Part shown: in pieces, positions 29,846 through 64,000 of the stretch
Layout of the letters: the number at the start of each line of letters is the position of its first letter
How positions within the stretch are numbered: position 1 is the first letter of the stretch
DNA from: Circinella minor
Taxonomy: Eukaryota; Mucoromycota; Mucoromycetes; Mucorales; Lichtheimiaceae
Length of the DNA: 64,000 nucleotides
Direction: 5' to 3'
NCBI GenBank assembly: GCA_016758965.1
Contig: JAEPRB010000211.1
Location: forward strand, 1 to 64,000
Made by a program: the position numbers and the translations under genes
The notes under the pieces: model-generated
Told to the model about the DNA's origin: nothing
Seen by the model: only the letters and a program-made list of their open reading frames with translations
Database searches by the model: none

Positions 29846-31726
29846 ATGTATATTACGTATTGCCGAAATCAGAAATCAGTGGACCAAGGAGTTAGGACAT
29901 CTTATCGGCTTAGTATGACAGGTGGAGAATATCGCCCCACCTGGCTCATTCGTGTTTTTGATTGGAGAAAGGTACCTGGCACAGAAGCAGTGGATGGGTA
30001 TCACACTATTTCGTATTGTTGGGAACAATCAGGCGAGGTCATTAAAAAGAAAACCACCAATAATGGTAACGATGAATACAGCTTCGTTGATAATGGTCAA
30101 CACTGTATTGTCGAAGGATATAATTTATATGAAGATGAAATTTTGGAAGTAGTCGACTCTATGGAGACAGAAGAAGATGGCTATCAAAATGAAAATAAAG
30201 AGGATGGTTATAAAAATTTCTATGAGAATGCCAATGAAGAAGCGATTAACTCCACGGAGTGCCTCCAATGGTGTAAGCCAAAGTCCAAAACACCAACTAT
30301 ACGAAATGTTACATATGATCAACTCTTACAACAGGTCTGCAAGGATTTTCAAGTCACGTACGTGTGGTATGATAAAGTTTGTATTGATCAGGCAGATAAC
30401 AAAGCCAAGTCGCGTGAAATTAACCAGATGCACAAGATCTATCGTAATGCTTGTTATACAATTGCTATGATTCCTGAAGTCATTCTTTATGATCCAAAAG
30501 ACTTTGAGCATCAAGTTTTTGGCAAAGGGCACAAAGCGCAGAAAAAATTCATAGATGATGTCTGGTATTCTTGCTGGTTTAAACGAAGTTGGACACTTGA
30601 AGAAGTAATGATGTCTAGACGTATCTTGATAGTCGGAACCAATACAAATATGTTTCAGCATAGTTTGCACTCAGCCGATAGGCCAACAACAGTAGACTTT
30701 CTTTCTAATGCATTGCTCAATTTTGGAGGATCGGAACAAAATGAGGGCAGCGTCAATCAAGCACTTGCTTTTGCTCATTTTCGAACAAGTACAAAGCCAC
30801 ATGACAAGATATATACATTGAGGAACACTTTTTCTTATATGTTTAACTATATCGAAACTAGCTATTCAACAGATATAAAAACCATATTCTACGATTTTTA
30901 TAGACGTGTTGCAATGGAAGATTTTTCTATACTGTGTTTTGGATCTAATCGATACTTTGATGGAAATATATATAATCAAAGTACAATTGATAATTACAAT
31001 TTACCTTCATGGACTGGTGTTGCCGGACATCATATAACCGATCGTGTCACGAGCACAACTCACCCACAATTAAGATATCGTATCGACAATGCTATGTTAA
31101 TGCACATAGCAACTACACGATATTGGAAGATATCTATCACGCCGTATGACCATGGGTGCTATTCATTATCTAAGAATAGTATTGAAGATAGTAACTCTTA
31201 TTTGGAGAAAATTAGTCGCATTAGGTTAGCCAGATTCAACGAGAAGTGGACCAATATGACTACAGCAGACAAGGATACTGTGCTGTTTGAATGGCTTGTG
31301 AATATGCAAAATGCAGCATCTTTGTATATGACACATTATCATCAGCGTCAAGATAGTCTACTTACACAAGCCAGACCACTTACATTGACAGAAGATTGTG
31401 AAGAATGCATAGTATTACCAATTTTATTTAACATACATGGACCGTTGCACTCACAACCTGATGCCGATGTGTCCAACTTTTTTATTGTTAACTATGCACG
31501 GAGCTACTGCCTTCCTGTATTACGTGAATGCACCAAGGGTAATGGACAGTATAGAGTAATTGGTATTTATTATGTTGGAGAGCATGTTAACCTATATGAG
31601 CCAACATTTGAATGGGGTCATTTTATTGGAAGGGAAGCTAGTAATACTGATGATACTGTAGAAATACTTGATGCTTTATTTGAAAATAATTGTTATGATG
31701 TACCAAAAGAATTTATTATTGAATAA
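29846..31726 (+). CDS. HET-domain-like protein A
   Basis: Single exon, 626 residues. The motif series follows the HET (heterokaryon incompatibility) domain: GYHTISYCWE at 51-60 (HET LSYxWG), YVWYDKVCIDQ at 172-182 (HET yiWIDaiCIdQ), EINQMHKIYRNACYTIAMIP at 191-210, and CWFKRSWTLEEVMMSRRIL at 243-261 (HET RxWTlQE). C-terminal HET features follow: TSTKPHDKIYTLRNTFSYMF, a YSTDIKTIFYDFY block and NLPSWTGVAG. The end is KEFIIE. Between motifs 1 and 2 is an acidic insert of ~40 residues (about 100-140). HET domains in Dikarya trigger cell death on non-self contact; such a role here is inference. No signal peptide or membrane segment. AATAAA follows at about 31765. Confidence 0.85.
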   Translation: MYITYCRNQKSVDQGVRTSYRLSMTGGEYRPTWLIRVFDWRKVPGTEAVDGYHTISYCWEQSGEVIKKKTTNNGNDEYSFVDNGQHCIVEGYNLYEDEILEVVDSMETEEDGYQNENKEDGYKNFYENANEEAINSTECLQWCKPKSKTPTIRNVTYDQLLQQVCKDFQVTYVWYDKVCIDQADNKAKSREINQMHKIYRNACYTIAMIPEVILYDPKDFEHQVFGKGHKAQKKFIDDVWYSCWFKRSWTLEEVMMSRRILIVGTNTNMFQHSLHSADRPTTVDFLSNALLNFGGSEQNEGSVNQALAFAHFRTSTKPHDKIYTLRNTFSYMFNYIETSYSTDIKTIFYDFYRRVAMEDFSILCFGSNRYFDGNIYNQSTIDNYNLPSWTGVAGHHITDRVTSTTHPQLRYRIDNAMLMHIATTRYWKISITPYDHGCYSLSKNSIEDSNSYLEKISRIRLARFNEKWTNMTTADKDTVLFEWLVNMQNAASLYMTHYHQRQDSLLTQARPLTLTEDCEECIVLPILFNIHGPLHSQPDADVSNFFIVNYARSYCLPVLRECTKGNGQYRVIGIYYVGEHVNLYEPTFEWGHFIGREASNTDDTVEILDALFENNCYDVPKEFIIE

Positions 31727-32696
31727 AAAAATACCAAAACTTATTGTAATCTATAAAAATATGTAAATAAAAACAACTTATATCTATATCATCAGACTTC
31801 TGTATTATCTTACATCTCCCCTTCCTTTGAACTTCAAACGCCTATACGTTTTGCTCATGTGTCTGTATCCATTCGGCTCGTGTCTTACTATTACTATTAT
31901 TCGACTAGAATACCATATTTAAATACACTATATTTAAACACATGAAATATCACAACAGAAGAATGTTTCAAGTATAATTTTTTACAAGATCAAAAAAACA
32001 GAAAAAAGAAAAAAAAATCGTACGGTGCATACTGACTAAACCGTCAAAATAATTTGAATCCTAAAACTGAAGTCTGTGAAATATTTTTGATATTAACAAT
32101 TTTTCTTTTTATGATTTTTTTGCTGCTGGATTTCCTTAAAAGGAGATGGGATGTATCACCACCTCGACAAGAGATACATACGTATGGTAATTAAATGTCA
32201 GTGTATTTAAGATATCTATAACACAAACTAGGTCATGGTTGTCTTGCATCCTTTAGAGAAATAGTTCAAAGTATATTACGTATTGAAAATATTATAACTT
32301 GCGACAAGAGGTGGCTGAAGCTATGTCTATATCAGCGCATGTTGTGTAATAAGCAATGTTTTTTTTTTGGGCTTCCAATATTTACATAAATGGAATTAGG
32401 TTTAGGTTGCAATTACACAAACTATTGTTTTTTTTTTCTTTTTGCGTATGTATATATAACTACATAACCTTAGATGTCCTTTTACTTTACTTTTTACTAG
32501 AAAAAGTACGCTTATTTCCGAAGTCAAAAAAAAAAAAAAAAGAAAAGAAACATTTACGTACTTGTGGGAAACTCTTTGTTTTTTTTTTTTTCACTCTGCT
32601 GTTAAGGTATGTGAAATAATTAAATTGTATATTCTTTTAATTAAAAATAAAAGAAAGAAACGGAATACAATATTAATAGAAAAAAAAATAGAAAAA
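31727..32696. other. Spacer between HET-like genes A and B
   Basis: Non-coding. It resembles the spacer at 62003-62926 in order: an ATATC.ATATCATCA stretch after the stop, an AGAAGAATGTTTCAAGTATAA-type block, and CATGTTGTGTAATAA followed by TTCCAAT..TT.ATAAAT..AAT. This shows the gene pair and its spacer share ancestry. The gene B promoter should lie in its last few hundred bases; an in-frame extension of the ORF to 32562 is AT-driven and rejected. Confidence 0.6.
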
Positions 32697-34706
32697 ATGT
32701 ATATAACATATTGTCGAAATCAAAAATCAGTGGATCTTGAGGATAGAACCGATTATCGACTTAGTCTGACTGGAGGAGACTATCGTCCTACTTGGCTCGT
32801 CCGTGTTTCTGATTGGGAAAAAGTACCTGGCACAGAAGCAGTGGATGGATATCACACTATCTCATATTGTTGGGAACAATCAGGCGAAGTTGTTAAAAAT
32901 GAAACCAATGAGGAATATAGCTTAGTTGATAACGGTAAACACTGTATTGTCGAAGACTTCAAATTATTCGAAGATTCTATTTTACAATGGGAGGATTTTT
33001 ATAACGCATTAATAGATATTCAAGAAGTTGATAAAGAAGTTGGTGAGAGAAAAATCCGCAAGATAATCAATCCAATAAAAAAGAGGATTACCAAAATGAA
33101 AATGATGCTACACAACAAAGAAGAACATCAAGAAGACAATCAAAAAAACGATGAAGAAAAGGATAAAGAAGATGCGTCTAAAGTTGCTTCTGACAATCAC
33201 GAAGAAGAATATCTGATGGATTTCAAAGACTATGTGTTATTCTGTGTACCACAGTCAAAAACAACAAGAATACGATATGTTACATATGAAGAACTCTTAC
33301 AACAAGTATGCAAGGATTTTCAAGTCGAGTATGTGTGGTATGATAAAGTTTGTATTGATCAGAAAGACAATAAAGCCAAGTCAAAAGAAATTAAACAGAT
33401 GCACAAGATTTATCAAAATGGTCGTTATACAATTGCTATGATACCTGAAGCCGCTGTCATCGATCCAAAAGACTTTGAGCATAAAGTTTTTGCTACTGGG
33501 CACAAAGCACAGGACAGATTAACCAATTGCGTCTGGGAATCGTGTTGGTTTAAGCGGAGCTGGACACTTGAAGAAGTAATGATGGCTAGACGCATCTTAA
33601 TAGTTGGAACCAATACAAATATGTTTCAAAATAGTTTGCATACAAATGACGTACCAACAACAATTGACTTTCTTTCCAGTACATTGCTTGATTTTGGAGG
33701 AAGAACAGAGCAGAATAAGGGTAGTGTTAATCAGGCACTTGCGTACGCTCATTTCCGAACAAGTACCAAACCACACGATATGATATATGCCTTGAAGAAC
33801 ACCTTTTACCATATGTTTGATGGTATGGAAATCAGCTATTCAACGAATATAAAAACGGCATTTAATGATTTTTATCGACATGTTGTAACAAACGATCTTT
33901 CTATATTGTGTTTTGGATCCAACCTTCGTTTTGATGGAGACGCACGTTTGAAAAGTACCATGGATAGTTACAATTTACCTTCATGGACTGGTGTTAGTGG
34001 AAGCCACGCAGATTCATATGTTAGTACCACACTTCACTCACAACTGAAGTATCACATTGACGACACTATGTGGATGTATATAACAACTAAGCACTACTGG
34101 AAGATACCTGTTAAACCATACGACCATGGTTGCTATTCTTTCCCAAAGACTAGTCGTGTAGAAAATGCTTTTTATGCCGAAAAAATAGACCGTATTAATA
34201 GGGACAGATGTCACAAAGACTATACTAATGATTTGACTACAGCGAACAAGCATGCTATATTATTGGAATGGATCGTGAATATTAATGCTGTAACAGGATG
34301 TTATATGACACACTACCATCAGCCTCAAGATGGTTTACTTACACAAATCAGACCACTTACATTGACTGAAGACTGTGAAGAATGTATAATATTGCCAATT
34401 TTACTTGAATCGCATACAGAGATATGCATACAACGTGATGAGAAGGTGTCCAACTTTACCATCGGGCGCTATGATCATGACTATTGTCTTCCTGTTCTGC
34501 GAGAATGTACTGAGGGTACGGGACGATATAAAGCAATAGGTGTCTATTACATTGGAGAAGGCAACAAGATTTCAGATCAACCAACATTTCAATGGAATCA
34601 TTGTATTGGAAGAGATGATATTTTTACTGATGATCCGAAAAAAATATTGAGTAGTCTCTTTGAAAATGATGATCATGATACACTAAAAGAATTTATTATC
34701 GAATAA
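32697..34706 (+). CDS. HET-domain-like protein B
   Basis: Single exon of 669 residues from the ATG at 32697, which aligns with the starts of A and C (MYITYCRNQKSVD). HET motifs: GYHTISYCWE at 51-60, EYVWYDKVCIDQ at 211-222, then KQMHKIYQNGRYTIAMIPE and CWFKRSWTLEEVMMARRIL. Downstream come TSTKPHDMIYALKNTFYHMF, a YSTNIKTAF block and NLPSWTGVSG; the end is KEFIIE. The insert between motifs 1 and 2 is ~80 residues: first basic (RKIINPIKKRITKMKMMLHN), then rich in E, D, K and N. This makes it different in charge pattern from A and C. It is 970 bp downstream of A on the same strand. Intact; likely functional. Confidence 0.85.
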   Translation: MYITYCRNQKSVDLEDRTDYRLSLTGGDYRPTWLVRVSDWEKVPGTEAVDGYHTISYCWEQSGEVVKNETNEEYSLVDNGKHCIVEDFKLFEDSILQWEDFYNALIDIQEVDKEVGERKIRKIINPIKKRITKMKMMLHNKEEHQEDNQKNDEEKDKEDASKVASDNHEEEYLMDFKDYVLFCVPQSKTTRIRYVTYEELLQQVCKDFQVEYVWYDKVCIDQKDNKAKSKEIKQMHKIYQNGRYTIAMIPEAAVIDPKDFEHKVFATGHKAQDRLTNCVWESCWFKRSWTLEEVMMARRILIVGTNTNMFQNSLHTNDVPTTIDFLSSTLLDFGGRTEQNKGSVNQALAYAHFRTSTKPHDMIYALKNTFYHMFDGMEISYSTNIKTAFNDFYRHVVTNDLSILCFGSNLRFDGDARLKSTMDSYNLPSWTGVSGSHADSYVSTTLHSQLKYHIDDTMWMYITTKHYWKIPVKPYDHGCYSFPKTSRVENAFYAEKIDRINRDRCHKDYTNDLTTANKHAILLEWIVNINAVTGCYMTHYHQPQDGLLTQIRPLTLTEDCEECIILPILLESHTEICIQRDEKVSNFTIGRYDHDYCLPVLRECTEGTGRYKAIGVYYIGEGNKISDQPTFQWNHCIGRDDIFTDDPKKILSSLFENDDHDTLKEFIIE

Positions 34707-35004
34707 AATATACCGAAAGTTATTGTATCATAATCTATAAAAATACGTATGTAAATAAAACAATACTTATATTATCTTTATATTATTATTATCTGATGTG
34801 TTACACGCTTCCCTTTTACATCAACTTTATATCATCCATATTTTTTCTTTGACATTCATACATTCATTTATCATGTAACCTATCATCACTAATATGTGTT
34901 TGAAGTATCGTATGATTACGTATCATAGTTAGACCCATACTTTACAAATTTCTAATACTACGTATTGTTTCTAATCTACTGTATACAATTAGGGTAGTTC
35001 TACC
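34707..35004. other. 3' flank of HET-like gene B
   Basis: AT-rich sequence with an AATAAA-like ATGTAAATAAAACAA near 34750, matching the 3' ends of A and C. No coding potential is seen. Confidence 0.45.
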
Positions 35005-35840
35005 TGTGCGATTTTTTTTTCTTAGCGGTGCGATTTTTTTCTCGCGGGTCTTCAACTGTAGTGGTACAGCGCCAACAGTCATAGCCAATCCTCTTGTGAT
35101 ATTAACAGTACGACTTCTCTTACTAAACATACTTCATTAAGATTCTATACAATTTTTTTTCTATAATAACTCCTTATGAATGATATTCCCTTTACTTAAT
35201 TTTGCACGCTTGAAACCATTATAATAAAATAGATTATATAAAATATATTAATTTTTACTGCTCATTAGTATCAATTTGCTCGAATATTAACACAAAAAAG
35301 AGGTTATATTTTTGGATTATATGCGTTTTTTTTTTAAAAAAAAAATACAAGTGCTCATCCGTGCGATTTTTTTTTTTTTTTTACTTTTGAATGGCAGTGC
35401 AACAATTTATTTGTTAATTTAAAAACTAATCTCTTAAAATATATAATATAAAGATGTATTGATTATCACTGGTTATTGATATCAACTTGCTCGAATATTA
35501 TCCTCAAAAATCAGACAATATTCTTGGATTGTTTGATTAAAATGGCTTTATTGGTAGTACGTATGGTGCGATTTTTTTTGTCTGAGCGTAAAATATGAGA
35601 AGAAGCTCTGCGATTTTTTTTTTCACTTCTGAATGGGATTACTAACAGTTTATTTGATAGTGTAAAAACTATCATAGTCTACTAAAATGTATAATATAAA
35701 AATGTATTGGTTATCAGTACCAATGTGTTCAAATATTATACACAAAAGAAAGGAGGTAATTGTCTTGAATTATTCCATTTAGAATAGCTTTATTTTGGTG
35801 CAATTTTTTTCTTACTCGCTGGTTCGTTAATTATCTACTA
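35005..35840. repeat. Degenerate tandem array with GTGCGAT(T)n blocks
   Basis: GTGCGA followed by 7-18 T occurs at about 35006, 35027, 35379 and 35569, with variants CTGCGATTTT near 35610 and GTGCAATTTT near 35798. Between them a longer unit recurs: TATAATATAAAGATGTATTG, a GTTATTGATATCAACTTGCT-like stretch and TCGAATATTA (about 35270, 35500 and 35740). Spacing is about 240 bp. It is an imperfect satellite-like array directly after HET-like gene B, with no ORF. Confidence 0.7.
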
Positions 35841-35959
35841 ATAACAATAAAACTTAACAAAATTAAAGCATCAATTTATTTGATATTTTGATATTGTTTT
35901 CTTGATTTTATCAACGATAATAACATGGTTTCAACATAGTAATTAATATATTATCTTCA

Positions 35960-36340
35960 TAGTGTCGGACATTTTTCAAACTACTTCAGAAAACAGTTTT
36001 ATCGTTGTAGGTATGAGATACATAAAGTAACACATATAGAGACTCTTGAAGTCAATGAATCAGATGCTGCTTTGAGCCCTCTTATGGGCAGCTGTAGAGG
36101 ATCTTGCAAGTATCACCGTTATTCTTTCACAGTACCTATGTCATATATCCAACAACGATTAATTCGTGAAGATATGAAAGAAGCTCTACGAGACGGAAAG
36201 CTGAATGAATTCGACATGATGAAGATGGAACATGCAGCGGACGAAAAACTCTTGGAGTATGCGTGATGATTACGAATGGAAAGAAGTCGTGTATGGGCAA
36301 AGATATGTATCCCGAAAATTAACAAGAATAGCATCATTCA
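35960..36340 (+). pseudogene. Unrecognised decayed coding fragment
   Basis: One frame is open from about 35943 to 36266 and ends CKYHRYSFTVPMSYIQQRLI, REDMKEALRDGKLNEFDMM and KMEHAADEKLLEYA. A different frame after the stop gives DDYEWKEVVYGQRYVSRKLT. Codon use and amino-acid mix look like real protein, unlike the surrounding AT-rich sequence, but there is no clear start and no known domain. It may be the end of a lost gene or transposon ORF. Confidence 0.4.
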
Positions 36341-38839
36341 ATTCTTTACTTGGTATAATAATCACGACTTGATTGTTATTTCTCCATCTCTATATTTTCT
36401 TTTTACTACAACATAATTTTCTTTTTCTCATATACTTATATATTTATCTCTTCTTATATTATCATTATCATTCTTACATATAAATACTTAATATTCCTAT
36501 TTGCTTAACTTTCTTTTGTTTTTCTTTCTATCATCCATTTTTATATTTCCTTCATAGTACTTTTTATATTGCCCAAATATATCAGCAATTTTCTTACATA
36601 TTAAAAAGTAATTACAAATGGATCTATTCAACTTATTGCTTTATATAATTTTGTCTTGAAGCATCACATTATAAGAGATATGGAAAATATTAAGCTATCA
36701 GAAGAAAAATGTAAAATAAAAGTGTTATTTCCATGACGATGAATCGTTGCAACCAAGTTTTCCTTTGACACGGAACGTTTTACATAAGAAATCTAAAAGT
36801 ATTTTTTTGGTTCTTGAAAGGATACGTAAAAGTTCTATTTTTTCTATGGCTCCTGATTTTTTTTTTTTTACGATACGTACATAGTACCTCACCATAATAA
36901 TTTTGGTCCCGCATTCACATGATATTATTTTATGTACATGTCGTTCAATCCTTGCTACCGATCATAAAAAAAGTGACCATTCCTATTTTAGTATTGTTGG
37001 ATAAATATATGATACAAAGCGGGAAAAATCATGGTCATCATTGTAGAAAAGAAAAAGATAAACTATTTTAAAGTGGTATATATTACAAATACTTCATTTA
37101 TTTTTTTCAACCGAAAAAGAAAGAGATAAAGATTTCTCTTATACTTTTTAATGTCTTTGATCGTATTGATAAAAGTAGTCCTTTTGTATTGGAAACAAAT
37201 TGCTTTTTGAAAAAAGAAAACCGTTTGTTTACTTGTTGACTGTGCAACATAAAAATTCACTCTCTATCATTTGTACTGTATTAGCATTGACATAAAAGTG
37301 TTGATCATGAGGGTTGAGTTATGTGGGTGAATCTTTTCTTTTTATGGTTTAGTGCCAATGGCCAAAAGCAAAGAAAAAAAAATCCAGTTTACTGGTTCAT
37401 TAAAATGAACTTTTTATTTCAATGATAATGTATATACAGGGTTTAAGTCTGTAAAAGTATGTTACGTAGTTGTGTTACGTAGAGAACTTGTTTAAATTTA
37501 TAAATGTTTGTATACGTATGTCATCATATATGAATAAGTAGTTTTTCTTTATATTCTAGAGTACTACGTACGTATTCTAATTAATTATAAAATTCGAAAT
37601 TACTATCTACGTATTGATTATAAAAATATCTTACTTTAAGTAAAATAGCTAACAAAACAATGGAATAATTGAATCAAGTCATGTTTTGTTGTTGTGGAGT
37701 GAGATTCTTTTAATTAAAATTAAACATATAATATAATAAACTTATCATAGCTTATGCGCTACAAAGTAAATAAAAACTTTACTTGGGAAAAAACACACGC
37801 TGTATTTTGTCTCCCTTTCAATCTGCATATATCTATCTGTGGAATGATTCGTTCCATCAGACATCTTCTTAATTATTGTGTGTATATGACACAAAACTGT
37901 GTTTTTTTTTTGTTATAGCGAAGTATTGAATAAAAAGAACAGAAGGGTAACAGTGTATATTGTTTTTTTTATATATAAAAAGGTGGAACGACATGTTTGG
38001 TGAAAAAAAGAATAAGGAAAGATTGAATAACAATTTACGATTTTTTATATTCTCTGTTCAATGATTTATTATATTTGAATGACATGTGTTGTAAAACGAT
38101 AACGAGTTTGTTATATATAACTTATAGATGAAGAGATTTTTTACTATACGTACTGCTTAAGATAAAGCGGATTCTCACAATGACACAAAATAGTATAGAT
38201 AATAAGGAAATAAATGTACACGCCTACGTATTAGGTGATAAAAGAAAAAAGTAAGGTTGAGGGATTACGTACAGGTAATAATAATAAAAAACAGATAATA
38301 ATTTATTTCTATATCTTGGATACTAATTGCTTTTGGAATTATATAGTTTTGTTTACGAACTATTGCTTATGTGGTGTACCAGAATTGTTTACTTTGTTAT
38401 AATAAAGGTGATGGTGGTTGTTCGTTCAAAAAAAACGTATTGGTAATTAAGTTCGAGAAAATAATTGTAAAATGACTGTTGCTTGCATTGATCAAATTTG
38501 TTTGTATTTGTACTTTTTTTTTACTACGTATCTACGTAATAATGAAGATATTTGTTCACACTAGTATTGTGTTTTACTGACTTTGATCAGAGAACGTATT
38601 ATATTCATGAAAAATAAAAGATAAAAATCATGTCAGCTGAGTGAAAACGCGCCATTTAGTTTTTATTCCTGACTTCAATCATATAATTTGAATTATCCAA
38701 TATTTACATATTAGCTTATATAGTTTTACGTTTGTAAATATATATATATACAGATCCTTTATGTTTGCTTATACGTATCAAGAAAAAAGAAAGGAAATAC
38801 GTAAGAGAAAAGAAAATATTCTTAATGTAGGTTTTTTGT
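36341..38839. other. Intergenic, nothing recognised
   Basis: About 2.5 kb of AT-rich DNA with many TACGTA words (for example ACTACGTACGTATTC near 37563) and short A/T runs. No open frame with plausible protein composition, no inverted-repeat element. Confidence 0.4.
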
Positions 38840-39085
38840 GTTTTTAAAGTTTTTTTGGGGTTTTTGTAGGTTTTAAATTTTCTAATTGGTTAAACAAGAA
38901 AAAAAGTGTCAATGAAAGAATTGTTTTTGTTAGATAAAAAAAATGTGTTTCAAACAGGTATTATATAACTTACGTACTTTTTGTGTTTTTTTTTAGTTTA
39001 TAAAATAAAAACCACTACAAAATAGAACAATTATAATTATAATACACATTAAAATGGTTTTTGTTTGTATGCAATAAGACAGAAC
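38840..39085. repeat. 3' flank duplicated with 47330-47633
   Basis: TTTTTGTAGGTTTTAAATTT, TTAAACAAGAAA, GTTTCAAACAGGTATTAT and AATTGTTCTATTTTGTAG-type blocks appear here and at 47330-47633 in the same order. This is the downstream flank of the paired acidic-protein genes and shows that the duplication reached beyond the coding sequence. Confidence 0.7.
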
Positions 39086-39446
39086 TTACCTTCTCCTTAG
39101 ATCCACAACGATGTGGCATTGGGGGGTGGGGAGGATATCCACCTCCATGTCCCCCTTCCAATAATCCACATCCATATCTTCTGCGTCTCCGAACTACCAA
39201 TCTACATCCGTCGGGTCGTCTTCATCTTCATTTTGGGCACCACCACCAGAACCATTACGAGAGCCACCGAACCCAACACCAGCGAAACGAGCACCCCAAA
39301 AAGCGCCATTAGAAGGGGCACCACGAACAGCAGAATCAGGGAATACACCAGAAGCAGTAGTAGCGGTAGTAGCAATAGCTTTGGGAAAATTACATTCCAA
39401 GAGCAGGTGTGATGGATGTCACGCCAGCCGCTACAGAAGTAGCCAT
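39086..39446 (-). pseudogene. Broken paralogue of the acidic-tail protein at 47634
   Basis: On the minus strand the sequence ends EDMDVDYWKGDMEVDILP, then TPQCHIVVDLRRR and TAA. This parallels EDMDVDWWEGDMEVDILP, PQCHINLVLKRR and TAA at 47634. Just upstream, where the other gene has VDWEFGD, this copy has VDW, a TAG, then FGD. Further upstream is a G/A/S-rich stretch (ARFAGVGFGGSRNGSGGG). A separate frame begins MATSVAAGVTSITPALGM at 39446 and needs a frameshift to join. The nonsense codon and frame change indicate a pseudogene, unless an unseen intron removes both. Confidence 0.6.
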
Positions 39447-39598
39447 TGACAGAAAAGCAAAGATAGAGGGGGGGTTACAAGACATATGATAATGATGTGA
39501 GCGGCGAAGAGGTGCAATGTCGCGTTTTGCGATTTCTTCATCCTTGACTTTATGAATGACTTTTTTTTAAACCTGCTTGCATCTGACTAGAGCCAGCT

Positions 39599-39811
39599 CT
39601 AAGAACAAGAGTAAATAGAGGAAACCGAGAAGCGTTCACTATGAACTTGAGCTCTATTGCACAACTGCATATGTATCAATAACGATAGATTTTCTATACA
39701 GAACCAACTCTTGGGACGGCAGTACCTTGAATACATAGTCGTTACTGGATATTCAAGTTCATCGACAATTCGAAGCTGGACAACATGGTCTTTGGAAAGA
39801 TTATCATCCAT
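39599..39811 (-). other. Small open frame of unknown nature
   Basis: Reads DDNLSKDHVVQLRIVDELEY, PVTTMYSRYCRPKSWFCIEN and onward for 70 residues, and could extend upstream to a TTTAG acceptor-like site at about 39835. Composition is protein-like, but no domain is recognised and no neighbouring exon can be proven. Probably a fragment. Confidence 0.3.
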
Positions 39812-40034
39812 AAATGATATTACGGTACCTAAAAATATATAATAATAATAGCATGATATTTAGTTAAATATTTTTATACATATCAAATATTTATAAGATC
39901 ATTGTCATTATTATGAACATTAGCTATACATACCATTCTACTACAAGTGCTTTACTTGAAAACGCTAGACGATGACTTACGATATTTGGCAATATGTCTT
40001 TAGGAACAAAAGGTAATTTGATAGGACCCATTTA

Positions 40035-42589: not shown

Positions 42590-42760
42590 TTTTTTATATG
42601 TTTTTTTTATATGTTTTTTTTATATGTTTTTTTTATATTTTTTTTTTTTATATTTTTTTTATAATGTTTTTTTTTTTTATAACGTTTTTTTTATATGTTT
42701 TTTTTATATGTTTTTTTATAGGTGTATTTTAATATGTTTTTTTTAATGATATGTTTTATA
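42590..42760. repeat. Minisatellite of T(7-8)ATATG units
   Basis: About twelve head-to-tail units of roughly 12 bases, mostly TTTTTTTTATATG, with variants ending ATAACG or lacking the G. The apparent Phe/Tyr-rich ORF across it is an artefact of the repeat. Confidence 0.85.
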
Positions 42761-43199
42761 TATATAATAATGGAATGGAATAACTTGATTAAGTCCCAAT
42801 ACCCCATGTGGTCGAGGCTTCGGTAATTGTTGATATCTTATTGTTGGTGCTACTTGATTTCTTAAGATTACAATATTGCTCCCTTGAAATTTTGATAATC
42901 ACAAAACGGAATGCACCTGAGTATATCTGCTACGTAGCTCGAATATATGTTGACCAAGGTATAATCAAACGTATTTTTTTTGTTGCGTATTTCTAGTAAT
43001 ATTAAGTTGCTCTTTTCTTTCGTTTGAGTGCTTAGTTGTTGCATGTTCTTCACTAATATGTGTCAATATAAGATACATAGTGTTGGTTGGATGGTTTCTT
43101 TCGTGGTAAACCAATTGTTAGTTGTTGATTGCGATTATAAAAAAAAGATACGAACTGTTAGGTGACGGTGGTGCTGTTAGCTACTGAATGTAACGTGCT

Positions 43200-53976: not shown

Positions 53977-55559
53977 ATGGCAAATTCATTTCTTTTAGAA
54001 ATGTCAGGGTTACAAACTCCTGCAAATATAACCCTAGGAACATATGCTGAAGATGGTCATACACAACCTACACTCGATTGGAGAAATGTTGCCGTTGCTT
54101 CTGGATTTATTCTTGTCAACGGTAAAGTGAATAAATATGTTTTTTTTTTTTTTTTTTTTACAGAACCTCTTTCAAAGAGTGAGATTCACATACACAGAGA
54201 GAGAATAAAATTATAGTAACTGTTTGGGGGTTACCAATAATATTTTTATTTGTTCTATGAAAATAAATGCTTTTTTTTTTCTTGACTAACTTATTGATAA
54301 ATCTACTTTTCATTAATAATATAATTAGGTATTATGTCGATTATGCTTGGATTAAAGTTAGAAAAATCACTTATTATTGCATCCATTCGATGTCTTGTAC
54401 AACTTACTATCATGGTAAAAAAGAGAATATTGTATTCTATAGAAAAAAAAAGAAAGGGATTTTTCTTTTCTGTGTGTGTGTGTGTGATGTAATAAATGCG
54501 TATACTAAACATGTTGTTGGTTGCATGCATTTGCATAATATCTATTTTTGATTTTTATAGGGTTATATCCTTGAGGATGTATTTAAAGCTCGACATCCAG
54601 CCATTATTATGTTAATGACATGTAGGTTTTATTATAATTATGTTGAACTCAGAATCGAAAAAGCATGAAAATAAATAATTAAATTTATATTGTACCATTC
54701 AACAGGCGTGTTAATTCTACTCGGTACATATGAAACTGTATATAATAAATCCAAACAGACTTTCCGTGGCATGGTAAATAAATTAATAATAATAGTAATA
54801 ATAATAAAATTTAGCAACAATAATTAAGTAAACTAACAAATATTTTTTTTTTTTTTTTAGTTTTTGGCAGTATTATTATCCACGGCATTTTCCACTCTTT
54901 TAATCGGCATTATTGGTAGTAAATATGCTATGGAACAACACCCTTTTTGGATTCCAGAAACCTTTATCCCTACCATGGGTATGCTCTTGGGTAATATGAT
55001 GAGTGGTATGGCTGTTGCATTAAGCAGTTGTTTATCCAGTGTTGGATCACGTAAAGAACATATCGAAACCTATTTAGCTTTTGGTGCAAGTCGTTGGGAA
55101 GCTGGTCAATCGATCGCCATTGAAGCTGTTCGATTAGCTATGTTACCTACAATTAATCAAATGTCAGTCATTGGTTTGATTTCTATCCCGGGTATGATGA
55201 CAGGTCAGATTTTGGGTGGTGCACCAGTCATGAATGCAGTAAGATACCAGCAGATCATTATGTTCTTGATTTCTGCCAGTACTGCATTAGGTGTATTGAG
55301 TGCTGTCGTAGCATGTATTCGTGTCATGATTGATAATCGTCATCGTCTTCGTCCTGAACGTATTGTTAATGGTAAAGCAAGTATATTCCGTGATATTCGT
55401 GATTTAATAGTAGCCACATGGAAATTATTTGTTTATGTCATCTGTTGTTGTGGTAAACGTAACAAAAAAGATCAACAAGAACGTCGTGGATCCTATCAAG
55501 AAGGAGCAGAAGAAGATACTGATCATGAAGATGTTCGTCAACCATTGTTAAATAATTAA
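53977..55559 (+). CDS. UPF0014/FetB-type membrane permease
   Basis: Multi-pass membrane protein of the UPF0014 family (bacterial FetB, plant ALS3/STAR2). Bacterial relatives partner an ABC ATPase in metal export. Five exons (53977-54121, 54329-54414, 54561-54621, 54706-54773, 54861-55559) sum to 352 residues. Conserved blocks: LIIASIRCLVQLTIMGYILE, MGMLLGNMMSGMAVALSS, YLAFGASRWEA, AMLPTINQMSVIGLISIPGM and MTGQILGGAPVMNAVRYQQ. The C-terminal ~60 residues are hydrophilic (KDQQERRGSYQEGAEEDTDH) and end in a PLLNN tail that may face the cytosol. No ATPase partner is nearby. Substrate in fungi unknown. Confidence 0.9.
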
Positions 55560-56419
55560 ATCATCATAACAACTATTTCTTAATAATAATTGTAATAGAA
55601 TATACTATTTCTTTCCTCCTCCCCACCTTCTTCTTACACTATTTACATATATACTCTCCCAAACACATTTTTACATATCCACTCCCTCCCCCCGCCTTTC
55701 TCACTACCACCACCATTTCAGTATACATATTATATACAACTCTTCATTCAATTCGTACACTCACACTCACACACATATATACTCGATATGAGATCCGCTT
55801 GTTTCTTTTTTCAAACAACACCCCCCCCTACTCTTTTTTTTCCTCATTATTATTATTCATATATCATTTCTGACTACTTTTTACTATATTTGATATACTT
55901 GGCTTGCATTTCATTTGTTTTTTTCTCCTACTTTATATATAAATATTGTTACTAATAAAAAAAAAGTTTATTTTTCTTTTTATTTATCTATTCATGGTTT
56001 GTTACACCATCAAAGTACAATGTTGAAAATTGGGGGGGGGGCGTGTTCTGTCATGCAAATAAAAATCAATTTATAAATTGAGTCACGTGAATGAAATTAA
56101 GTTATCAACTTTTTGAAGTGAAAGCCCTTTCCCAAACTATTAAATCATCTCTCTATTTATGCCATATATAGAATATTAAAATATTTAGACTGAGTACATT
56201 TCATCTTTTTTTTAATTTAATTTATAAATCAAATAACCTATACTCATTATTATTACTATACTGTATTATAATAAAAGGTCTTGGGGCATAAAAATTCGTC
56301 CTCCATCTGTTTTTTTTTTCCAGAATGTACGTAAAATTTCCGAAAAAGATAGGTTAAATGACCTATTTGTTTAGGTCTACTAAGTATTTATCAATATTGA
56401 AACTTACGTTTTTTAATTA
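55560..56419. other. Intergenic, 3' flank of the permease gene
   Basis: C/T-rich stretches (55610-55700, 55820-55850) and a run of nine G at about 56033-56041. No coding signal is seen. Confidence 0.4.
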
Positions 56420-56584
56420 TTGGATAAATTATTACGTATGGGTAGTGATGCTGCTATTCATTGAACATTGAGTAAATTGAAACCAATAACTGTTGTTGTT
56501 CATACAACAAGATCTGTTAGACTTAATATCAAACCAAAGTGGATGTTCATGAAACGAGGATCAGAACCTATTATTTATGAATAA
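56420..56584 (+). pseudogene. Orphan coding fragment with one stop
   Basis: One frame reads LDKLLRMGSDAAIH, a TGA, then TLSKLKPITVVVHTTRSVRL and NIKPKWMFMKRGSEPIIYE to a TAA. Composition is clearly protein-like and codon use resembles nearby genes, but there is no start or partner exon, and I do not recognise the source protein. Probably the 3' end of a duplicated or retrocopied gene. Confidence 0.5.
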
Positions 56585-56990
56585 TATCAAGCATGAATCA
56601 TACTTGATTGACAATTTTTTATAATGGTTGTATTGGTACGTATCTGAAAAAGGATTAAATACCAAAATATTTTTCTGAATTTAAATAGTAGTATAATATA
56701 TATATACATAGCTACATAATAAAATAGTCTAATAATATATAGATTATATTCATTTTTATTAAGTAAAACAATTCAAATGCGTTTGATAAAAAAACTCAAT
56801 ATTAATCTCACTTGGCTTATTCCCAATTCAACTACGTTCTGTATTAATCATGTAATTTTAAAAGTCCATTCATAGACAAGCAAAAGAAAACGGGCGGTAA
56901 ACCAAAAAAAAAAAAATAATTAATTGAAAATAATCCCCCATTTTGTTTTTTTTTTTTTTTTTTTACTTCCCACTTTTTTTTTTCTTCGAT
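56585..56990. other. Leader/promoter of the fusion gene
   Basis: AT-rich, ending in T tracts right before the ATG at 56991. The frame is open upstream to 56943 only because of the T run (poly-Phe), so that extension is not used. Confidence 0.45.
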
Positions 56991-58888
56991 ATGACAGATT
57001 CAAATAAACGGATAAATTATTTAAAAGCAACTGTTCGAGAAGCTGATAATGATACTCGAATTAAAAAATGGTTATTAAAACATTATCGTTCTATTGTTCA
57101 ATCACAAGAATGTTGTCGACGTGCATTTCATCGTAAAGAAGTATCTGTTAATGGTCAATTAGCAGAAGAAACTCGAATTTTAAAAGGGGGAGATATTGTT
57201 GAAGTACGTTATGATCAAGCGCTTGTAGATCGTGAGAAATTAAAGACAATTCCTGTGGATATTCGATATCAAGATGAACATATAGCTATTGTTTGGAAAG
57301 CTCCTGGATTGGTTTGTTAAATCTATTCTTTCATTTTATTATTTTTACTGTTTTAACGTACCATGGATAGATGTCTTATATTATTATTATTATTTAGAGT
57401 TGTTCCATATTTGAAAAAGCAGCATTTTATGCATTAACAAATACAACAGAACAAGAAAAATTTTGGTCACCTTATTCTATGCAAAAAGCGGCTTCCGGTT
57501 TGGTAAAATGAAAATATATAATCACTTTTTCTATTATTCTTATCCTGAAGTTTAAACTTTATTTTATTTATTTTTTATAGTTGGTCATTGCAAAAACAGA
57601 AAAAGCAAAAGATGAAATTAATCGACAATATCAAAAGGGTGAAATGGATCTATCCATACGGGCCATTTGTCATGGTCGTCTTTTTCCCGATGTACTCGAT
57701 CGTATAAAAGAACAAGAAAAAACAACTACGATTCAAGAAGAAGTACAACAAAACAATAATGAAAAGTCAACAAAAAATGATTATAACAATGACAATGACG
57801 ATCAAGAAGACGATCAAGATAATATGAATCGACCTGTCACTGAATTACTTAAATCAATAGCCATAGTCAACATCACACGATCCAACCATGCTGAATACTT
57901 GACAACAGTGGATCTCGCCATTCAAACACCACTGAATGGAGCAGCTCTACGTAAACTGATGGCTACACAAGACCGCCCCATTGTTGGCAATTCCACCTAT
58001 ACCCGAGTTTTAAAATCCAGCAAAGACAAAGGATTATGCATGACGACGAACCATATTGCCATCACTCACCCTACCACCCATGAACGACTTTCTTGGAATT
58101 CCAATGAACCTGATAAATTTGAATTATTACGTGCTAGAGAACACAAATTTTGGAAAAGAAGAATGGATGAAAAATTGGAAACGATGCGTAAAGCCGGAAT
58201 ATCCATGGATGCTTCAGGAGGGGATGAATTTGTGGATGATATGTATAATGAAGAAAATGGGAAACCTTTAGCCTATGTATTAGGCGAAAAAGAATTTTGT
58301 CAACTTAAATTCAAAGTGACAGAAGCATGTTTAGTGCCACGCCCAAGTTCGGAAATTTTGGTTCAAGCGACGGTCGATAGGAAACCAAAACGTGTATTGG
58401 ATATTGGTACTGGATGTGGTAATTTACTCTTGTCGATTTTGAATCAATCAAAAGAGACAGAATGTGGTATTGGATTAGATATTAGTAAAGAAGCACTTCA
58501 AGTAGCCAAAGAAAATGCAGATCGATTGGGAATTAAAACGGCACAATTTGTTGAAAAAGATATGTCACTTTTACCAGAAGCTGGATTAGGATTATTTGAT
58601 GTTATTGTATGTAATCCACCTTATCTTAGTGAAAAGGCTATTTTTAAACATCGACTATTAGAACATGAACCTGCAACAGCATTATTTGCAAATGATGATG
58701 GATATGAATGGTATACAGTACTTAGCAAGGTAGCTCCAACGGTTATGCATCGTCATTCGAAATTAGTACTTGAGTGTGGTAAAGGAATGATGGAACGTGT
58801 ACAAGTTATTATGGCTGGTTGGAAGACAGTTGAAATTCGAAAAGATTCGCATAATTGGGATCGATGTCTTGTACTCGAAATGGAATAA
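56991..58888 (+). CDS. RluA-like (catalytically dead) + HemK/PrmC-like methyltransferase fusion
   Basis: Three exons (56991-57311, 57398-57502, 57581-58888) give 577 residues. Residues ~15-75 resemble an S4 domain (EVSVNGQLAEETRILKGGDI). Residues ~85-300 resemble RluA pseudouridine synthases (IPVDIRYQDEHIAIVWKAPG, SGLLVIAKTEKA), but the HRLD motif is YSMQ at 133-136, so the catalytic Asp is a Gln. A D/E/N/Q-rich linker interrupts it near 195-230. From ~370 a HemK/PrmC-like Gln-N5 methyltransferase follows: PLAYVLGEKEFCQLKFKVTE, PRPSSEILV, DIGTGCGNLLLS (418-422 GTGCG) and catalytic NPPY at 487-490. One substrate-guiding half and one active methyltransferase half is inference. NPPY indicates methylation of a Gln or nucleobase amine, classically release factors. 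Confidence 0.85.
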
Positions 58889-59875
58889 TAATAATAATAC
58901 CTTGTAATCTAATTTTTATCATCTTTGTAATATTCACTTTAATAATAATAATAATAATGTTTTATCTAATTCATGAAAAGAAAAAGCATGTTTATATTTT
59001 ATACGATCTTGATAGTGCTTTGTTAGGCATTTTGTTTCTAATATAATTCTATTTCTATGTATAGTGCAAGTATTTTATTTAAATACATATACCTCATCAT
59101 TATATATTTTCGACGTTACCTTCAAATTATTGTTAAGAATCGTATCATTTCAACTACATTGATTTGACAGCCACTTGTGTAACAAACTACGAACAAAAAA
59201 AAAAAAACTTAAATCATTTTACGTACCACATTTTCTACCTACGATAAAATTCTATCCAAATTATTAACCATCATTTAATATACATTTTTATTCGCATGTG
59301 TTTATATTGTTCTATATCAATCAACCATTTTTTTTTGTGTACGTATTGTATATAATCTGTTATAAGATAATAGATATATACTCCAGTTTTTCTAGTAAAA
59401 ACACTTACTCTACAAAAATAATTATTTGTGTAATCTACTTAAAACCTTATTTTTTATTTAATAAAGCTTGAAACACACTGGGAATCATTCTTATTTTTAA
59501 CACACAACGGTGTTTGCATTTCTATTGTCATACTCTTGTGTATTCTTCTTCATATATTCATCTTCAGCCTCCTTTCTGTTCCTCTTCTCTGCATTTTACA
59601 GCATAACCTTTATAAGTCGTTCTGATGATAAAAATAAGTAGTTTTTTTTCTTTTCTTCTTCCTTTTCTCTTTTTCACGTTTCTATTATTTATCACGTTTT
59701 GATTCAATTTTATTTGCTTCCTGTATTTATTATATTGGTAAGTGATAATAGAAAAAGAAATACGTTTATTTCAACAACAAAAATAAAAATTACAAGATAG
59801 TTACTACTAAAAAAAACTACCCTTCATGTTCACGGCTGACAAACGTTGTCTATTTTCAATACAGTGTAGAAAATA
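58889..59875. other. Upstream region of HET-like gene C
   Basis: AT-rich with AAT-triplet runs just after the fusion gene. It ends in GTGTAGAAAATAATG, the start context shared with gene A. No ORF of note. Confidence 0.45.
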
Positions 59876-62002
59876 ATGTATATTACCTATTGTCGAAATC
59901 AAAAATCAGTGGATCTGGTCGACACAACAAGTTATCGACTCAATGTAACAGGTGGAGAATACCGCCCTACCTGGCTCATGCGTGTTTCTGATTGGAAACG
60001 AGTACCTGGCAAAGAAGCAGTGAATGGCTATCACACCATTTCCTATTGTTGGGAACAATCAGGGGAAGTGGTGAAAAATGAAACGGATGATGAATATAGC
60101 TTAGTTGATCATGGTAAACACTGTATCGTCGAAGGATACAAAGTATACGAAGATGATATTTTACGATTGGTGGACTTTTCTGACACAGAAGAAGACGAAC
60201 AAGAATATTGTGAGGACGACGATGAAGAGGAAAATCCACAAGATGATAATGACAATGAAGTCGATGAAGAAGACGACTATGAAAACGATTATGGAAATGA
60301 ATCTATAGATCATTTTGATGCTGATGAAGAACGCGATGAAGAAGTGGCTTGTGAAAATATTTATAAAGATGACTCTAATGTTAATAGTGATGGAGAAGGC
60401 GATTCTGAAAGTTATTATACCGCTCACTCTTATGTTAATGAAGATGATGAAAAAGGCAATTATGAAAGTGATGATGATGATTCTGAAAGCGATTCTGACG
60501 GTGAAGAACAAGAATCGATTGACTACAATGAGTATGTCTCATGGTGTGATACAAAGTCAAACACAGCAAATATACGATATGTTAGATACGACGAACTCTT
60601 GCAACAAGTATGCAAGGATTTTCAAGTCGAATATGTGTGGTATGATAAAATATGTATCGATCAATCAGATCCCAAAGCAAAGTCACGAGAAATCAAGCAG
60701 ATGCACAAGATTTATCGCAATGCACGTTATACGATTGCTATGATACCCGAAGTCCGTCTTTACAATCCACAAGACTTTGAAGAAGAAGCTTTAGGTTTTG
60801 CTCACAAGGCACAGGACTATGTGACAGATGATGTTTGGTATTCTTGCTGGTTTAAACGAAGCTGGACACTTGAAGAAGTAATGATGGCGAGACGTATCTT
60901 GATAATCGGAGCCAATACAAATATGTTTCAGCATAGTTTGCATACAACAGACGTACCAACAACAGTAGACATTTTTTCCGGCAAATTGCTTGATTTTGAA
61001 GGAACAGAAAGGAATAAGGTGAGTGTCAACCAGGCACTTGCTTTCGCTCATTTCCGAACAAGTACAAAACCACACGACATGATATATGCATTGAAGAACA
61101 CGTTTTCCCATATGTTTGATGACATTGAAGTCAGCTATTCAACAGATATAAAAACGGTATTCAATGAGTTTTATCAACATACGGCGGCAGTTGATCTTTC
61201 TATATTGTGCTTTGTATCCAACAATAATTTTGATGGGAGTATACTTACGCAAAGCACCATGGATAGTTACAATTTACCTTCATGGGCAGGTGTTGCTGGA
61301 GTACATGTAGAAAATCGTGCCATTATTACGATTGATCCACAATTGGAGTATCATATCGATGACACTATGTGGATGCATATAACAACCAAGCAGTATTGGA
61401 AGATATCTATCACATCATATGACCGCGGTTGTTTTTCTTTGTCAAAAAATAGTATTGAAGAAATAAACTCTTATGTGGAGAAAAGAAATCGCATGAGGAA
61501 TACGAAAAATAATGATCACGAACTGGATTTGAGTACAGCAGACAAGGATACAGTATTACTAGAATCGGTTTTGAATATGCAAAACGCAACAGGTGCCAAT
61601 ATGACACATTATCATCAGCCTGAAGATGATTTACTAACACATATCAGACCGCTCACATTAACTGAAGATTGTGAAGAATGTATAGTATTACCTATTTTAC
61701 TTCAATTACGCACACCGGTATACAAACGAACGGGTGAAGGTGTCCCTAGCTTTATTATTAAAGACTATGACCATGACTACTGTCTTCCTGTTCTACGTGA
61801 ATGCATTGAGGGGGCTGGGCGATATAGAGCAGTAGGTATTTATTATGTTGGAGTTCGGGATCATAGGTCAACTGAACCACCATCAAAGTTGATGGATTAT
61901 ATTGGGAGAGATGATATCAATTTTGATGACCCTAAAGAAATAATCAGTGCTTTATTTGAGAATGATTGTCATGAAGTATCAAAAGAATTTATCATTGAAT
62001 GA
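59876..62002 (+). CDS. HET-domain-like protein C
   Basis: Single exon, 708 residues. HET motifs: GYHTISYCWE at 51-60, EYVWYDKICIDQ at 252-263, IKQMHKIYRNARYTIAMIPE, and CWFKRSWTLEEVMMARRIL. C-terminal blocks are TSTKPHDMIYALKNTFSHMF, a YSTDIKTVFNEFY block and NLPSWAGVAG; the end is KEFIIE. Its insert between motifs 1 and 2 is the longest, ~120 residues (about 102-220), almost wholly D, E, S, N and Y (SDDDDSESDSDGEEQES). Outside the insert it is very similar to A and B. Intact; a HET-type recognition or cell-death role is inference. The partner copy at 62927 is 924 bp downstream. Confidence 0.85.
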   Translation: MYITYCRNQKSVDLVDTTSYRLNVTGGEYRPTWLMRVSDWKRVPGKEAVNGYHTISYCWEQSGEVVKNETDDEYSLVDHGKHCIVEGYKVYEDDILRLVDFSDTEEDEQEYCEDDDEEENPQDDNDNEVDEEDDYENDYGNESIDHFDADEERDEEVACENIYKDDSNVNSDGEGDSESYYTAHSYVNEDDEKGNYESDDDDSESDSDGEEQESIDYNEYVSWCDTKSNTANIRYVRYDELLQQVCKDFQVEYVWYDKICIDQSDPKAKSREIKQMHKIYRNARYTIAMIPEVRLYNPQDFEEEALGFAHKAQDYVTDDVWYSCWFKRSWTLEEVMMARRILIIGANTNMFQHSLHTTDVPTTVDIFSGKLLDFEGTERNKVSVNQALAFAHFRTSTKPHDMIYALKNTFSHMFDDIEVSYSTDIKTVFNEFYQHTAAVDLSILCFVSNNNFDGSILTQSTMDSYNLPSWAGVAGVHVENRAIITIDPQLEYHIDDTMWMHITTKQYWKISITSYDRGCFSLSKNSIEEINSYVEKRNRMRNTKNNDHELDLSTADKDTVLLESVLNMQNATGANMTHYHQPEDDLLTHIRPLTLTEDCEECIVLPILLQLRTPVYKRTGEGVPSFIIKDYDHDYCLPVLRECIEGAGRYRAVGIYYVGVRDHRSTEPPSKLMDYIGRDDINFDDPKEIISALFENDCHEVSKEFIIE

Positions 62003-62926
62003 AAAAAAAAATTATAATCTATAAAAAATATAAAAATAAAAACAATTTATATCACTATCATCAAAACCTGTGAAGTATATCTTCCTTTCTCCTCAACTTA
62101 ATATGTATATGTTTTTGCTTAACTCCAAGTACCCATTTGACATGAAAGTCTATTATTACTATTAGTTGTTTAGAGTATCATGGTTACTTATTTAAATCCG
62201 TACAGCATTGCAATAGAAGAATATGCATACCACAATTTAGGTATAACCTTTTGCTTGATCAAAACATAAAAAACAAAAATACGTAAAAAATATCGTACCT
62301 AGGCGTTTACAATTTTTCTTTATGGGACTTCTGTTGTTAGACTTCATTAACTAGGATAACAATTAGGAAATGCGTATTATCATTTATCTGCAACATGTGA
62401 ATACGCATAACAAATAAATCAAATGCTTCTATAAGACATTTATTACACGAACTCGATAACCCTTTTCTTCTCGTACTTGAATAATAATAATATCTATCAT
62501 TTAGTTAGTATTCAATAAGTAAGTTAGAAAAAAAAAGCAAAAAATAAAATAAAAAAGTAGTACGAGCTTTCACCATGAGAAAGCTTAAAATATATACATA
62601 TAAAAAAAGTCCCCATGTTGTGTAATAAAGAATTTCTTGATACTTCCAATGTTTTTATAAATAAAATAATAAGGTTCATATTGCGATTACACAACGCGTT
62701 TTTTTTTAAAAAAAAAACTACGTACGATTATTTCTGAAGCGAAAAAAATAAAATATTAATAGGAAAGTGTTTATATATATATATATATTTTCAACACTGA
62801 TTCTTGAGGTATGTGAAATGGTAAACTTTATATATTACTTTCACAAAAATAAAAAATGAACCAAAAATTATAAGTGTTAACAAAAAAAAAAAAAAAAAAA
62901 AAGGTATGTAGAAGGATGAAAAAATA
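62003..62926. other. Spacer between HET-like copies C and D
   Basis: Non-coding; resembles 31727-32696 in order of blocks (ATATCACTATCATCAAAAC, GCAATAGAAGAATATGCAT, CATGTTGTGTAATAAAG, TTCCAATGTTTTTATAAAT). A run of about 22 A at 62882-62902 precedes the start of D. Confidence 0.6.
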
Positions 62927-64000
62927 ATGTATATAACATATTGTCGAAATCAAAAATCTGTGGATTTGGTCGACACAACAAGTTATCGACTCAATGTGAC
63001 AGGTGGAGAATATCGCCCTACCGTGGGACACAAGCAGTAGATGGATACCACACCCTTTCATATTGCTGGGAACAATCAGGCCAGGTTGTTAAAAAAGATG
63101 ACGACGCTGGTGATGAATATGATTTGATTGATAACGGTGAACATTGTATTGTCGAAAAATATGAAATATACAAGGACAAGATAATAAGACCGGTCGAATG
63201 GATGACTGACTCTGAATCAGACGAACAAGAAGTAGAAGTAGAAGAAAAATGCAACACATATGTAACCTGGTGTAAATCACGGTGCGAAAAAGCAACAATA
63301 AGAAATGCGACTTTTATGAAGAGCTTATACAACAAATATGTCATGATTTCCAGATTGATTATTTATGGTATGATAAAGTATGTATCGATCAACACGACGA
63401 AGAAGCCAAATTAAACGAAATTAGGCAAATGCATAATATTTATCGCAACGCTCGTTTTACAATTGCTATCATTTCTGAAATAGCTCTTTATAATCCAGAC
63501 GATTTTGAACATGAGGACTTACCAGTCGGTCACAGAGCAAGGTACTATTCTTTAAATGATATGGTGGCATCTTGTTGGTGGACGCTGGAAGAAGTCATGA
63601 TGTCCAAACGTATTTTGATAGTTGGGACCGACACAAATATGTTCCAACATAGTATGCATAATAAAAAAAAGAGTGGATGTCATACCTACAACAATAGACA
63701 TATTATCTGATGCATTACTTGATTTTGGAGGCTCCCAAGGACAAGACAGTGTCAACCAAGCACTTTCTTTTGCCCATTTTCAAACTAGCACAAAGTCCCA
63801 TGACATGATATTTGCGTTGAAAAATACTTTTGCGCATATGTTTGAAGAAATGGAAATCAGTTATTCAACAGACATACAAACCACATTTAACAAATTTTAT
63901 CAGCATATTGCTACAGTAGATCTCTCGATCCTGTGTTTTGGATCCAACTCACTTCCAAATGGAGATATAAATCAAGAACATACCATTCATAGTTACACTT
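62927..64000 (+). pseudogene. HET-like copy D, disrupted, runs off the window
   Basis: Starts MYITYCRNQKSVDLVDTTSY like the intact genes. Breaks: (1) ~40 bases are missing after GGEYRPT (about 63023), losing the WLxRVSDW segment and shifting frame; (2) a one-base shift at about 63308-63312 before YEELIQQICHDFQIDYLWYD; (3) an in-frame loss of four residues at 63578, giving SCWWTLEEVM where others have CWFKRSWTLEEVM; (4) a further shift in an A run at about 63663-63672. HET motif order is otherwise kept (GYHTLSYCWE, YLWYDKVCIDQ) and the tail SHDMIFALKNTFAHMFEE is readable to the edge. The insert is short and acidic (SDEQEVEVEEK). A pseudogene unless these are assembly errors. Confidence 0.8.

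What the first reader, a model, noticed from the sequence alone, without database searches (positions are those of the whole stretch)
29846..64000. A clustered HET-like (heterokaryon-incompatibility-type) family in what looks like a Mucoromycete
Genes A, B and C and the relics D and 16270-16512 share the HET motif order: SYCWE, YVWYDKxCIDQ, IYRNARYTIA, RSWTLEEVM, then PHDxIYAL and LPSW. HET domains are well described in Ascomycota and Basidiomycota, where they act in allorecognition and cell death; a clustered, diversifying family in an early-diverging fungus would be unusual. The sequences are far enough from textbook HET (SYCWE not SYxWG) that automated tools may miss them.
Basis: partly seen in the sequence, partly recalled or inferred. 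Interest (0 to 1): 0.8.

Follow-up and report, generated by a model that had tools for sequence, protein, structure and literature searches.

The report
Clustered HET gene family in Circinella
This pin-mould genome carries several dozen clustered, fast-diverging copies of a fungal self/non-self-type gene (HET) that looks like a distant cousin of the TIR enzymes used in immunity; such expansions were already known in this mould family, so it is a new example of a known kind rather than a new phenomenon.

Summary
Real and correctly named. Genes A, B, C and a piece of broken copy D match Pfam HET (PF06985) at 45.8-49.9 bits against a cut-off of 22.5. The contig is Circinella minor (Mucorales, Lichtheimiaceae): a named C. 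minor protein is 100% identical over 669 residues to a copy on the same contig. The genome has 68 HET matches on 34 contigs, 42 of 68 within 20 kb of another. Two claims fail. Automated tools do not miss them (UniRef and Pfam already label them). Such a cluster is not unprecedented: 52 HET genes, many in tandem, were reported in Lichtheimia corymbifera in 2014 (PMC4133162). What I add: predicted structures place the HET domain nearest TIR / deoxyribosyltransferase / SIR2 folds, at modest scores. A W-x-x-x-E (E253 of A) present in 50 of 50 paralogues matches the plant TIR motif. The core is constrained while one loop and the C-terminal half vary faster. No TIR or NB-ARC match and one borderline NACHT match were found. 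Best reading: one-protein TIR-like death effectors with a diversifying C-terminal sensor. Activity and immune role are untested.

The parts
29846..31726 (+). Gene A, 626-aa HET protein in one reading frame
   Evidence: PF06985 49.9 bits; AlphaFold2 model pLDDT 87.2, pTM 0.88
32697..34706 (+). Gene B, 669-aa HET protein in one reading frame; nearest relative C. umbellata P0009 (84% over 500 columns)
   Evidence: PF06985 49.0 bits; tree
59876..62002 (+). Gene C, 708-aa HET protein in one reading frame; nearest relative C. umbellata P0012 (86% over 406 columns). The deposited model (P0020, 429 aa) covers only part of this frame
   Evidence: PF06985 45.8 bits; tree; deposited model mapped to the window
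62927..64000 (+). Gene D, broken copy; continues past the window to about 64731 of the contig
   Evidence: 63276-63707 piece PF06985 48.1 bits; frame changes by tblastn; sequence and frames
30584..30610 (+). Gene A residues 247-255, RSWTLEEVM, with W249 and E253 (proposed equivalent of the TIR catalytic glutamate)
   Evidence: position; W249 and E253 50 of 50; plant TIR motif
33555..33581 (+). Same motif in gene B (residues 287-295)
60857..60883 (+). Same motif in gene C (residues 328-336)
30122..30289 (+). Gene A residues 93-148, acidic, length-variable insert inside the HET domain; residues 104-140 have pLDDT under 50
30746..31723 (+). Gene A residues 301-626, C-terminal half without a Pfam or PADLOC match; faster-evolving than the HET core
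16408..16512 (-). Short HET relic (residues 44-77)
   Evidence: tblastn E 9.6e-10, 74% identity
28014..28396 (-). Second HET relic, two pieces in different frames (residues 364-391 and 406-485 of B)
   Evidence: tblastn E 5.6e-6

Best explanation
A-D belong to a lineage-specific expansion of HET-domain genes in Circinella minor. Shown: PF06985 membership, single-frame genes, tandem clusters, genus-wise expansion, a constrained N-terminal domain with an invariant W-x-x-x-E, and a faster-evolving loop and C-terminal half. Inferred from structure: the N-terminal domain is a divergent TIR/deoxyribosyltransferase-type fold. Inferred, untested: when the C-terminal half senses a non-self or stress cue, the HET domains self-associate and E253 helps cleave NAD+ (or make a nucleotide signal), halting or killing the invaded or damaged hyphal compartment. 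In fungi that appear to lack NLRs, receptor and effector would thus sit in one protein, and birth and death of tandem copies would supply diversity.
Against: No Foldseek hit at E<=0.001 for either model, and all VIA Z are under 8, which the tool says may be only a common arrangement. No Pfam TIR match to the HET domain. E253 and W249 are only 'at least 90%' in alignment A1 of 58 rows, not invariant. In the tandem clade the E253 segment has dN/dS 0.44, higher than the core. No dN/dS above 1 was seen in the pairs or regions printed, so there is no proof of positive selection. HET enzymatic activity had not been established according to PMC10197012 (2023; passages). Nothing here shows a ligand, cell death or expression.
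Confidence: 0.5

Rival explanations
1. The HET domain is a TIR-like assembly adaptor without catalysis: it recruits other proteins by homotypic contacts, and E253 is structural.
For: PMC4986451 favours an adaptor role for HET (passages). Fold scores are weak and cannot show an active site. W244, W249, G264 and other likely structural residues are as invariant as E253.
Against: Lowest pooled dN/dS in the window clade is around E253 (0.09); the glutamate sits at W+4 as in plant TIRs.
Confidence: 0.25
2. Classical vegetative incompatibility: allelic HET differences kill fused hyphae, as in Podospora or Neurospora.
For: Family name and PF06985 membership; HET domains trigger death in several Dikarya systems (PMC10197012, passages).
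Against: PMC4133162 states that Mucorales do not form heterokaryons by somatic fusion. [quoted passage not shown] No population data were available.
Confidence: 0.08
3. Physiological or stress-signalling family unrelated to immunity, for instance responding to iron or oxygen.
For: Several Lichtheimia HET genes go down under iron depletion and hypoxia (PMC4133162, passages); a C62-type member has close relatives in all five species sampled (92, 72, 64, 59% identity).
Against: Genus-wise expansion, relics and tandem arrays look like birth-and-death repertoires rather than housekeeping.
Confidence: 0.12
4. Decaying repeat family with no current function.
For: Nine of 68 matches lie in frames of 237 aa or less; D and two relics in the window are broken.
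Against: 59 of 68 lie in open frames of 498 aa or more; dN/dS 0.24-0.44 in the 45 pairs of the ten-gene window family.
Confidence: 0.05

Closest known systems
HET expansion of Lichtheimia corymbifera (PMC4133162, 2014)
   Same: Same NCBI family Lichtheimiaceae as Circinella; dozens of PF06985 genes (52), HET among the dominant domains of tandem duplications; weak similarity to Dikarya HET reported there.
   Different: Different genus. I could not compare sequences: none of the three homologue searches returned a Lichtheimia protein, which may reflect the database or the word filter.
HET-domain proteins of Dikarya (Podospora HET-E/D/R, Neurospora TOL, PIN-C, HET-6)
   Same: PF06985 domain at the N-terminal side; conserved blocks; proposed TIR relation.
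   Different: No NACHT or WD40 partner: A, B and C have PF06985 as their only Pfam match; the C-terminal half is unassigned.
TIR-domain NADases (plant TIR such as RUN1, SARM1, AbTir, SPARTA)
   Same: Nearest folds by VIA; W-x-x-x-E motif.
Fungal NLRs
   Same: Possible analogous role as a clustered receptor-effector repertoire (inference).
   Different: No nucleotide-binding domain in A-C; genome shows no NB-ARC match and one borderline NACHT match with stops.

Membership tests
HET domain family PF06985 | Match over the curated cut-off (22.5 bits) | tested here: met
   A 49.9, B 49.0, C 45.8, D piece 48.1 bits; 68 of 68 genome matches over the cut-off
HET domain family PF06985 | Conserved blocks in order (SYxW..., WxDxxCIDQ, RxWTLEE) | tested here: met
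   S56 Y57 W59, D176 C179 I180, W249 E253 each 50 of 50
HET domain family PF06985 | Triggers cell death or incompatibility | not testable with these tools
   needs expression or genetics
TIR domain superfamily | TIR-type fold | tested here: inconclusive
TIR domain superfamily | Sequence match to Pfam TIR or TIR_2 | tested here: not met
   No TIR family among matches up to E 10 for the C62 HET domain or E 1 for A-C; no match of PF01582 or PF13676 in the genome
TIR NADases | Catalytic glutamate at W+4 | tested here: met
   E253 in 50 of 50; RUN1/RPV1 SRWCLDELV; that this Glu is the catalytic one is recalled. Equivalence rests on motif position, not on a residue-level superposition
TIR NADases | NAD+ cleavage | not testable with these tools
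   needs biochemistry
Fungal NLR (NACHT or NB-ARC) | Nucleotide-binding oligomerisation domain in the protein | tested here: not met
   Only PF06985 in A, B, C at E up to 1

The most novel reading that the evidence does not exclude
In Lichtheimiaceae, which appear to lack NLRs and somatic fusion, HET proteins form a self-contained innate immune repertoire: each is a one-protein TIR-type NADase receptor, with a diversifying C-terminal sensor and an exposed hypervariable loop next to the catalytic helix, and a conserved C62-type member acts as a common helper. HET would then be primarily a non-self-defence module, with allorecognition a later use in Dikarya.
Probability: 0.2. Interest if true: 0.7.

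Novelty: new member of a known kind. Interest (0 to 1): 0.32.

Why it matters
If HET domains in fungi without NLRs and without hyphal fusion are TIR-like NADases, they would separate HET from heterokaryon incompatibility and offer a clean place to test what HET does. The window itself mainly extends a published expansion to another genus, with intact paralogues, a predicted full-length structure and one residue to test.

Tried and rejected
Foldseek against the PDB with the full-length and HET-only models gave no match at E<=0.001; its listed rows are unrelated folds apart from one deoxyribosyltransferase at E 4.6. Profile search of PDB sequences with A1 and A3 gave only insignificant matches: alginate lyase, subtilisin, histone H3.3. 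PADLOC gave nothing. tblastn against plasmids gave nothing. No Rfam family in the window. SSU rRNA search of the genome did not complete, so the organism rests on protein and contig identity. Considered and dropped: positive selection (no dN/dS above 1 in what was printed); a bacterial or plasmid origin (only; origin not otherwise tested). Not done: a structure of the C-terminal half alone, a residue-level superposition on a TIR, comparison with Lichtheimia or Dikarya HET sequences, a count in Mucoromycota genomes beyond the named homologues, any test of expression.

Rows dropped before counts: the tree used 75 of 132 retrieved proteins (C. minor's own, unnamed-source and those under 440 aa left out) plus 50 C. 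minor frames. The 50 paralogues are frames of 500 aa or more found among 55 of the 68 matches; 5 of the 55 gave no such frame (a copy on C70, one on C122, D, one on C7, a fragment on C323), and 13 matches were not fetched. One of the 50 (L026, third copy) is cut by the edge of my fetched stretch, and L034 was started at an inner Met.
Full report
Observation. Genes A (29846-31726), B (32697-34706) and C (59876-62002) are uninterrupted + strand frames of 626, 669 and 708 codons. PF06985 (HET) is their only Pfam match at E up to 1, at 49.9, 49.0 and 45.8 bits against a cut-off of 22.5; D piece 63276-63707 scores 48.1 and D piece 62920-63411 matches nothing. D is a broken full-length copy: pieces align from 62927 to about 64731 of the contig in frames 3, 2, 1 and 2, and its last part, outside the window, is interrupted by two in-frame stops. 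An uninterrupted copy E follows at 65599-67605, outside the window. Two relics lie on the minus strand at 16408-16512 (E 1e-9) and 28014-28396 (E 6e-6).

Host. The homologue search with A returned 83 proteins; 74 carry an organism name and all 74 are Circinella minor, C. umbellata, Phascolomyces articulosus, Zychaea mexicana or Fennellomyces; 9 have none. The searches with alignment A2 and with the C62 gene returned 57 and 56 proteins, 48 and 47 of them named, from the same five. These lists are limited by a word filter. C. minor protein P0004 is 100% identical over 669 residues to copy E, which lies on the window's own contig; other C. minor proteins are 100% identical to frames on further contigs, and contig lengths agree for several (68505, 57122, 54772, 219406, 38009), though one is listed as 122378 there and 122221 here. 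NCBI places C. minor, Phascolomyces and Fennellomyces in Mucorales, Lichtheimiaceae (Zychaea not looked up).

Genome-wide family. PF06985 matches 68 places on 34 contigs, all over the cut-off; 59 of 68 lie in open frames of 498 aa or more, 9 in frames of 237 aa or less (counted by hand). 42 of 68 lie within 20 kb of another, against a mean of 3.8 and a maximum of 16 in 2000 uniform placements that ignore contig boundaries. From 55 of the 68 matches I obtained 50 frames of at least 500 aa. Each runs through the whole protein without an intron, although deposited models of some copies (for example gene C, P0020) cover only part of the frame.

Evolution. On a tree of 125 proteins from five species, species labels need 32 changes against 62.0 in shuffles (0 of 200 as low), that is, genus-wise expansions; 40 of 122 inner branches are poorly supported. 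B and C have close C. umbellata relatives (84% and 86%), A has none closer than 71%. Pairwise dN/dS is 0.24-0.44 in the 45 pairs of a ten-gene window family; of 424 pairs with dS under 1.5, the 40 closest that were printed range from 0.26 to 0.68. Pooled by region, the window clade (9 genes) has 0.16 in the core, 0.09 around E253, 0.66 in the acidic insert, 0.51 in loop 216-245 and 0.42-0.51 in the C-terminal half; the tandem clade (20 genes) has 0.23, 0.44, 0.53, 0.87 and 0.62-0.68. Pairs are not independent and loop alignments are uncertain, so this shows relaxed or diversifying change, not proven positive selection. The C62 gene has relatives at 92, 72, 64 and 59% in the other four species, a possible conserved hub, but I searched with this gene and not with each of the others, so it may be favoured by sampling.

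Active-site motif. W249 and E253 are present in 50 of 50 paralogues and in all 77 rows of A3, but only in at least 90% of the 58 rows of A1. The 50 read W-[TC]-[LFY]-x-E. Plant TIR chains RPV1 and RUN1 read SRWCLDELV, and RUN1 entry 7s2z has A in place of that E; that this is the catalytic glutamate is recalled knowledge. The PF06985 match to the C62 protein ends exactly at the corresponding E210.

Context. The genome has no match to TIR (PF01582), TIR_2 (PF13676) or NB-ARC, and one NACHT match at 27.6 bits (cut-off 26.7) with three stops inside; the search ignores introns, so split genes could be missed. This agrees with the report of no NLRs in Mucorales (PMC4986451, passages).

Literature. 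PMC4133162 (passages): in L. [quoted passage not shown] it states Mucorales do not fuse somatically and calls the function and origin unclear. PMC5604411 (passages): multiple HET copies in Apophysomyces, absence in R. arrhizus. PMC10197012 (passages): HET-TIR relation, enzymatic activity not yet established. Searches for HET with NADase, Circinella, Phascolomyces and early-diverging fungi found no paper on this family in Circinella or an assay of HET NADase activity in listings; the library is partial and holds no preprints.

Verdict. A real HET family, correctly recognised, in a mould family where such expansions were already known. The mechanism offered, a TIR-like effector with a diversifying sensor, is reasonable and testable but not shown.

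Noticed in passing
window 59876-62002 and P0020: The deposited protein model for gene C (429 aa) covers only part of an uninterrupted 708-codon frame, so deposited models of this family may be wrongly spliced; the C62 gene (539 codons, deposited as 498 aa) is similar.
   Followed up: partly
G000:C62:120902-121384: The family member with the best PF06985 score has relatives at 92, 72, 64 and 59% identity in the four other species, a candidate conserved hub of an otherwise fast-turning family; sampling favours it.
   Followed up: partly
G000:C122: Eleven HET matches on one 122-kb contig, on both strands, an array denser than the one in the window.
   Followed up: partly
window 30122-30289 (A) and the matching parts of B and C: An acidic, disordered, length-variable insert sits inside the HET domain of the window clade and is longest in C.
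   Followed up: partly
window 23552-24427: Leucine-rich-repeat protein (LRR_8, 62 bits) near the HET cluster; no link tested.
   Followed up: no
window 18858-19373, 24501-25109, 54861-55556, 57581-58885: Ordinary neighbours: RsmB/F-type methyltransferase, M18 aminopeptidase, UPF0014 membrane protein, small-domain methyltransferase.
   Followed up: no
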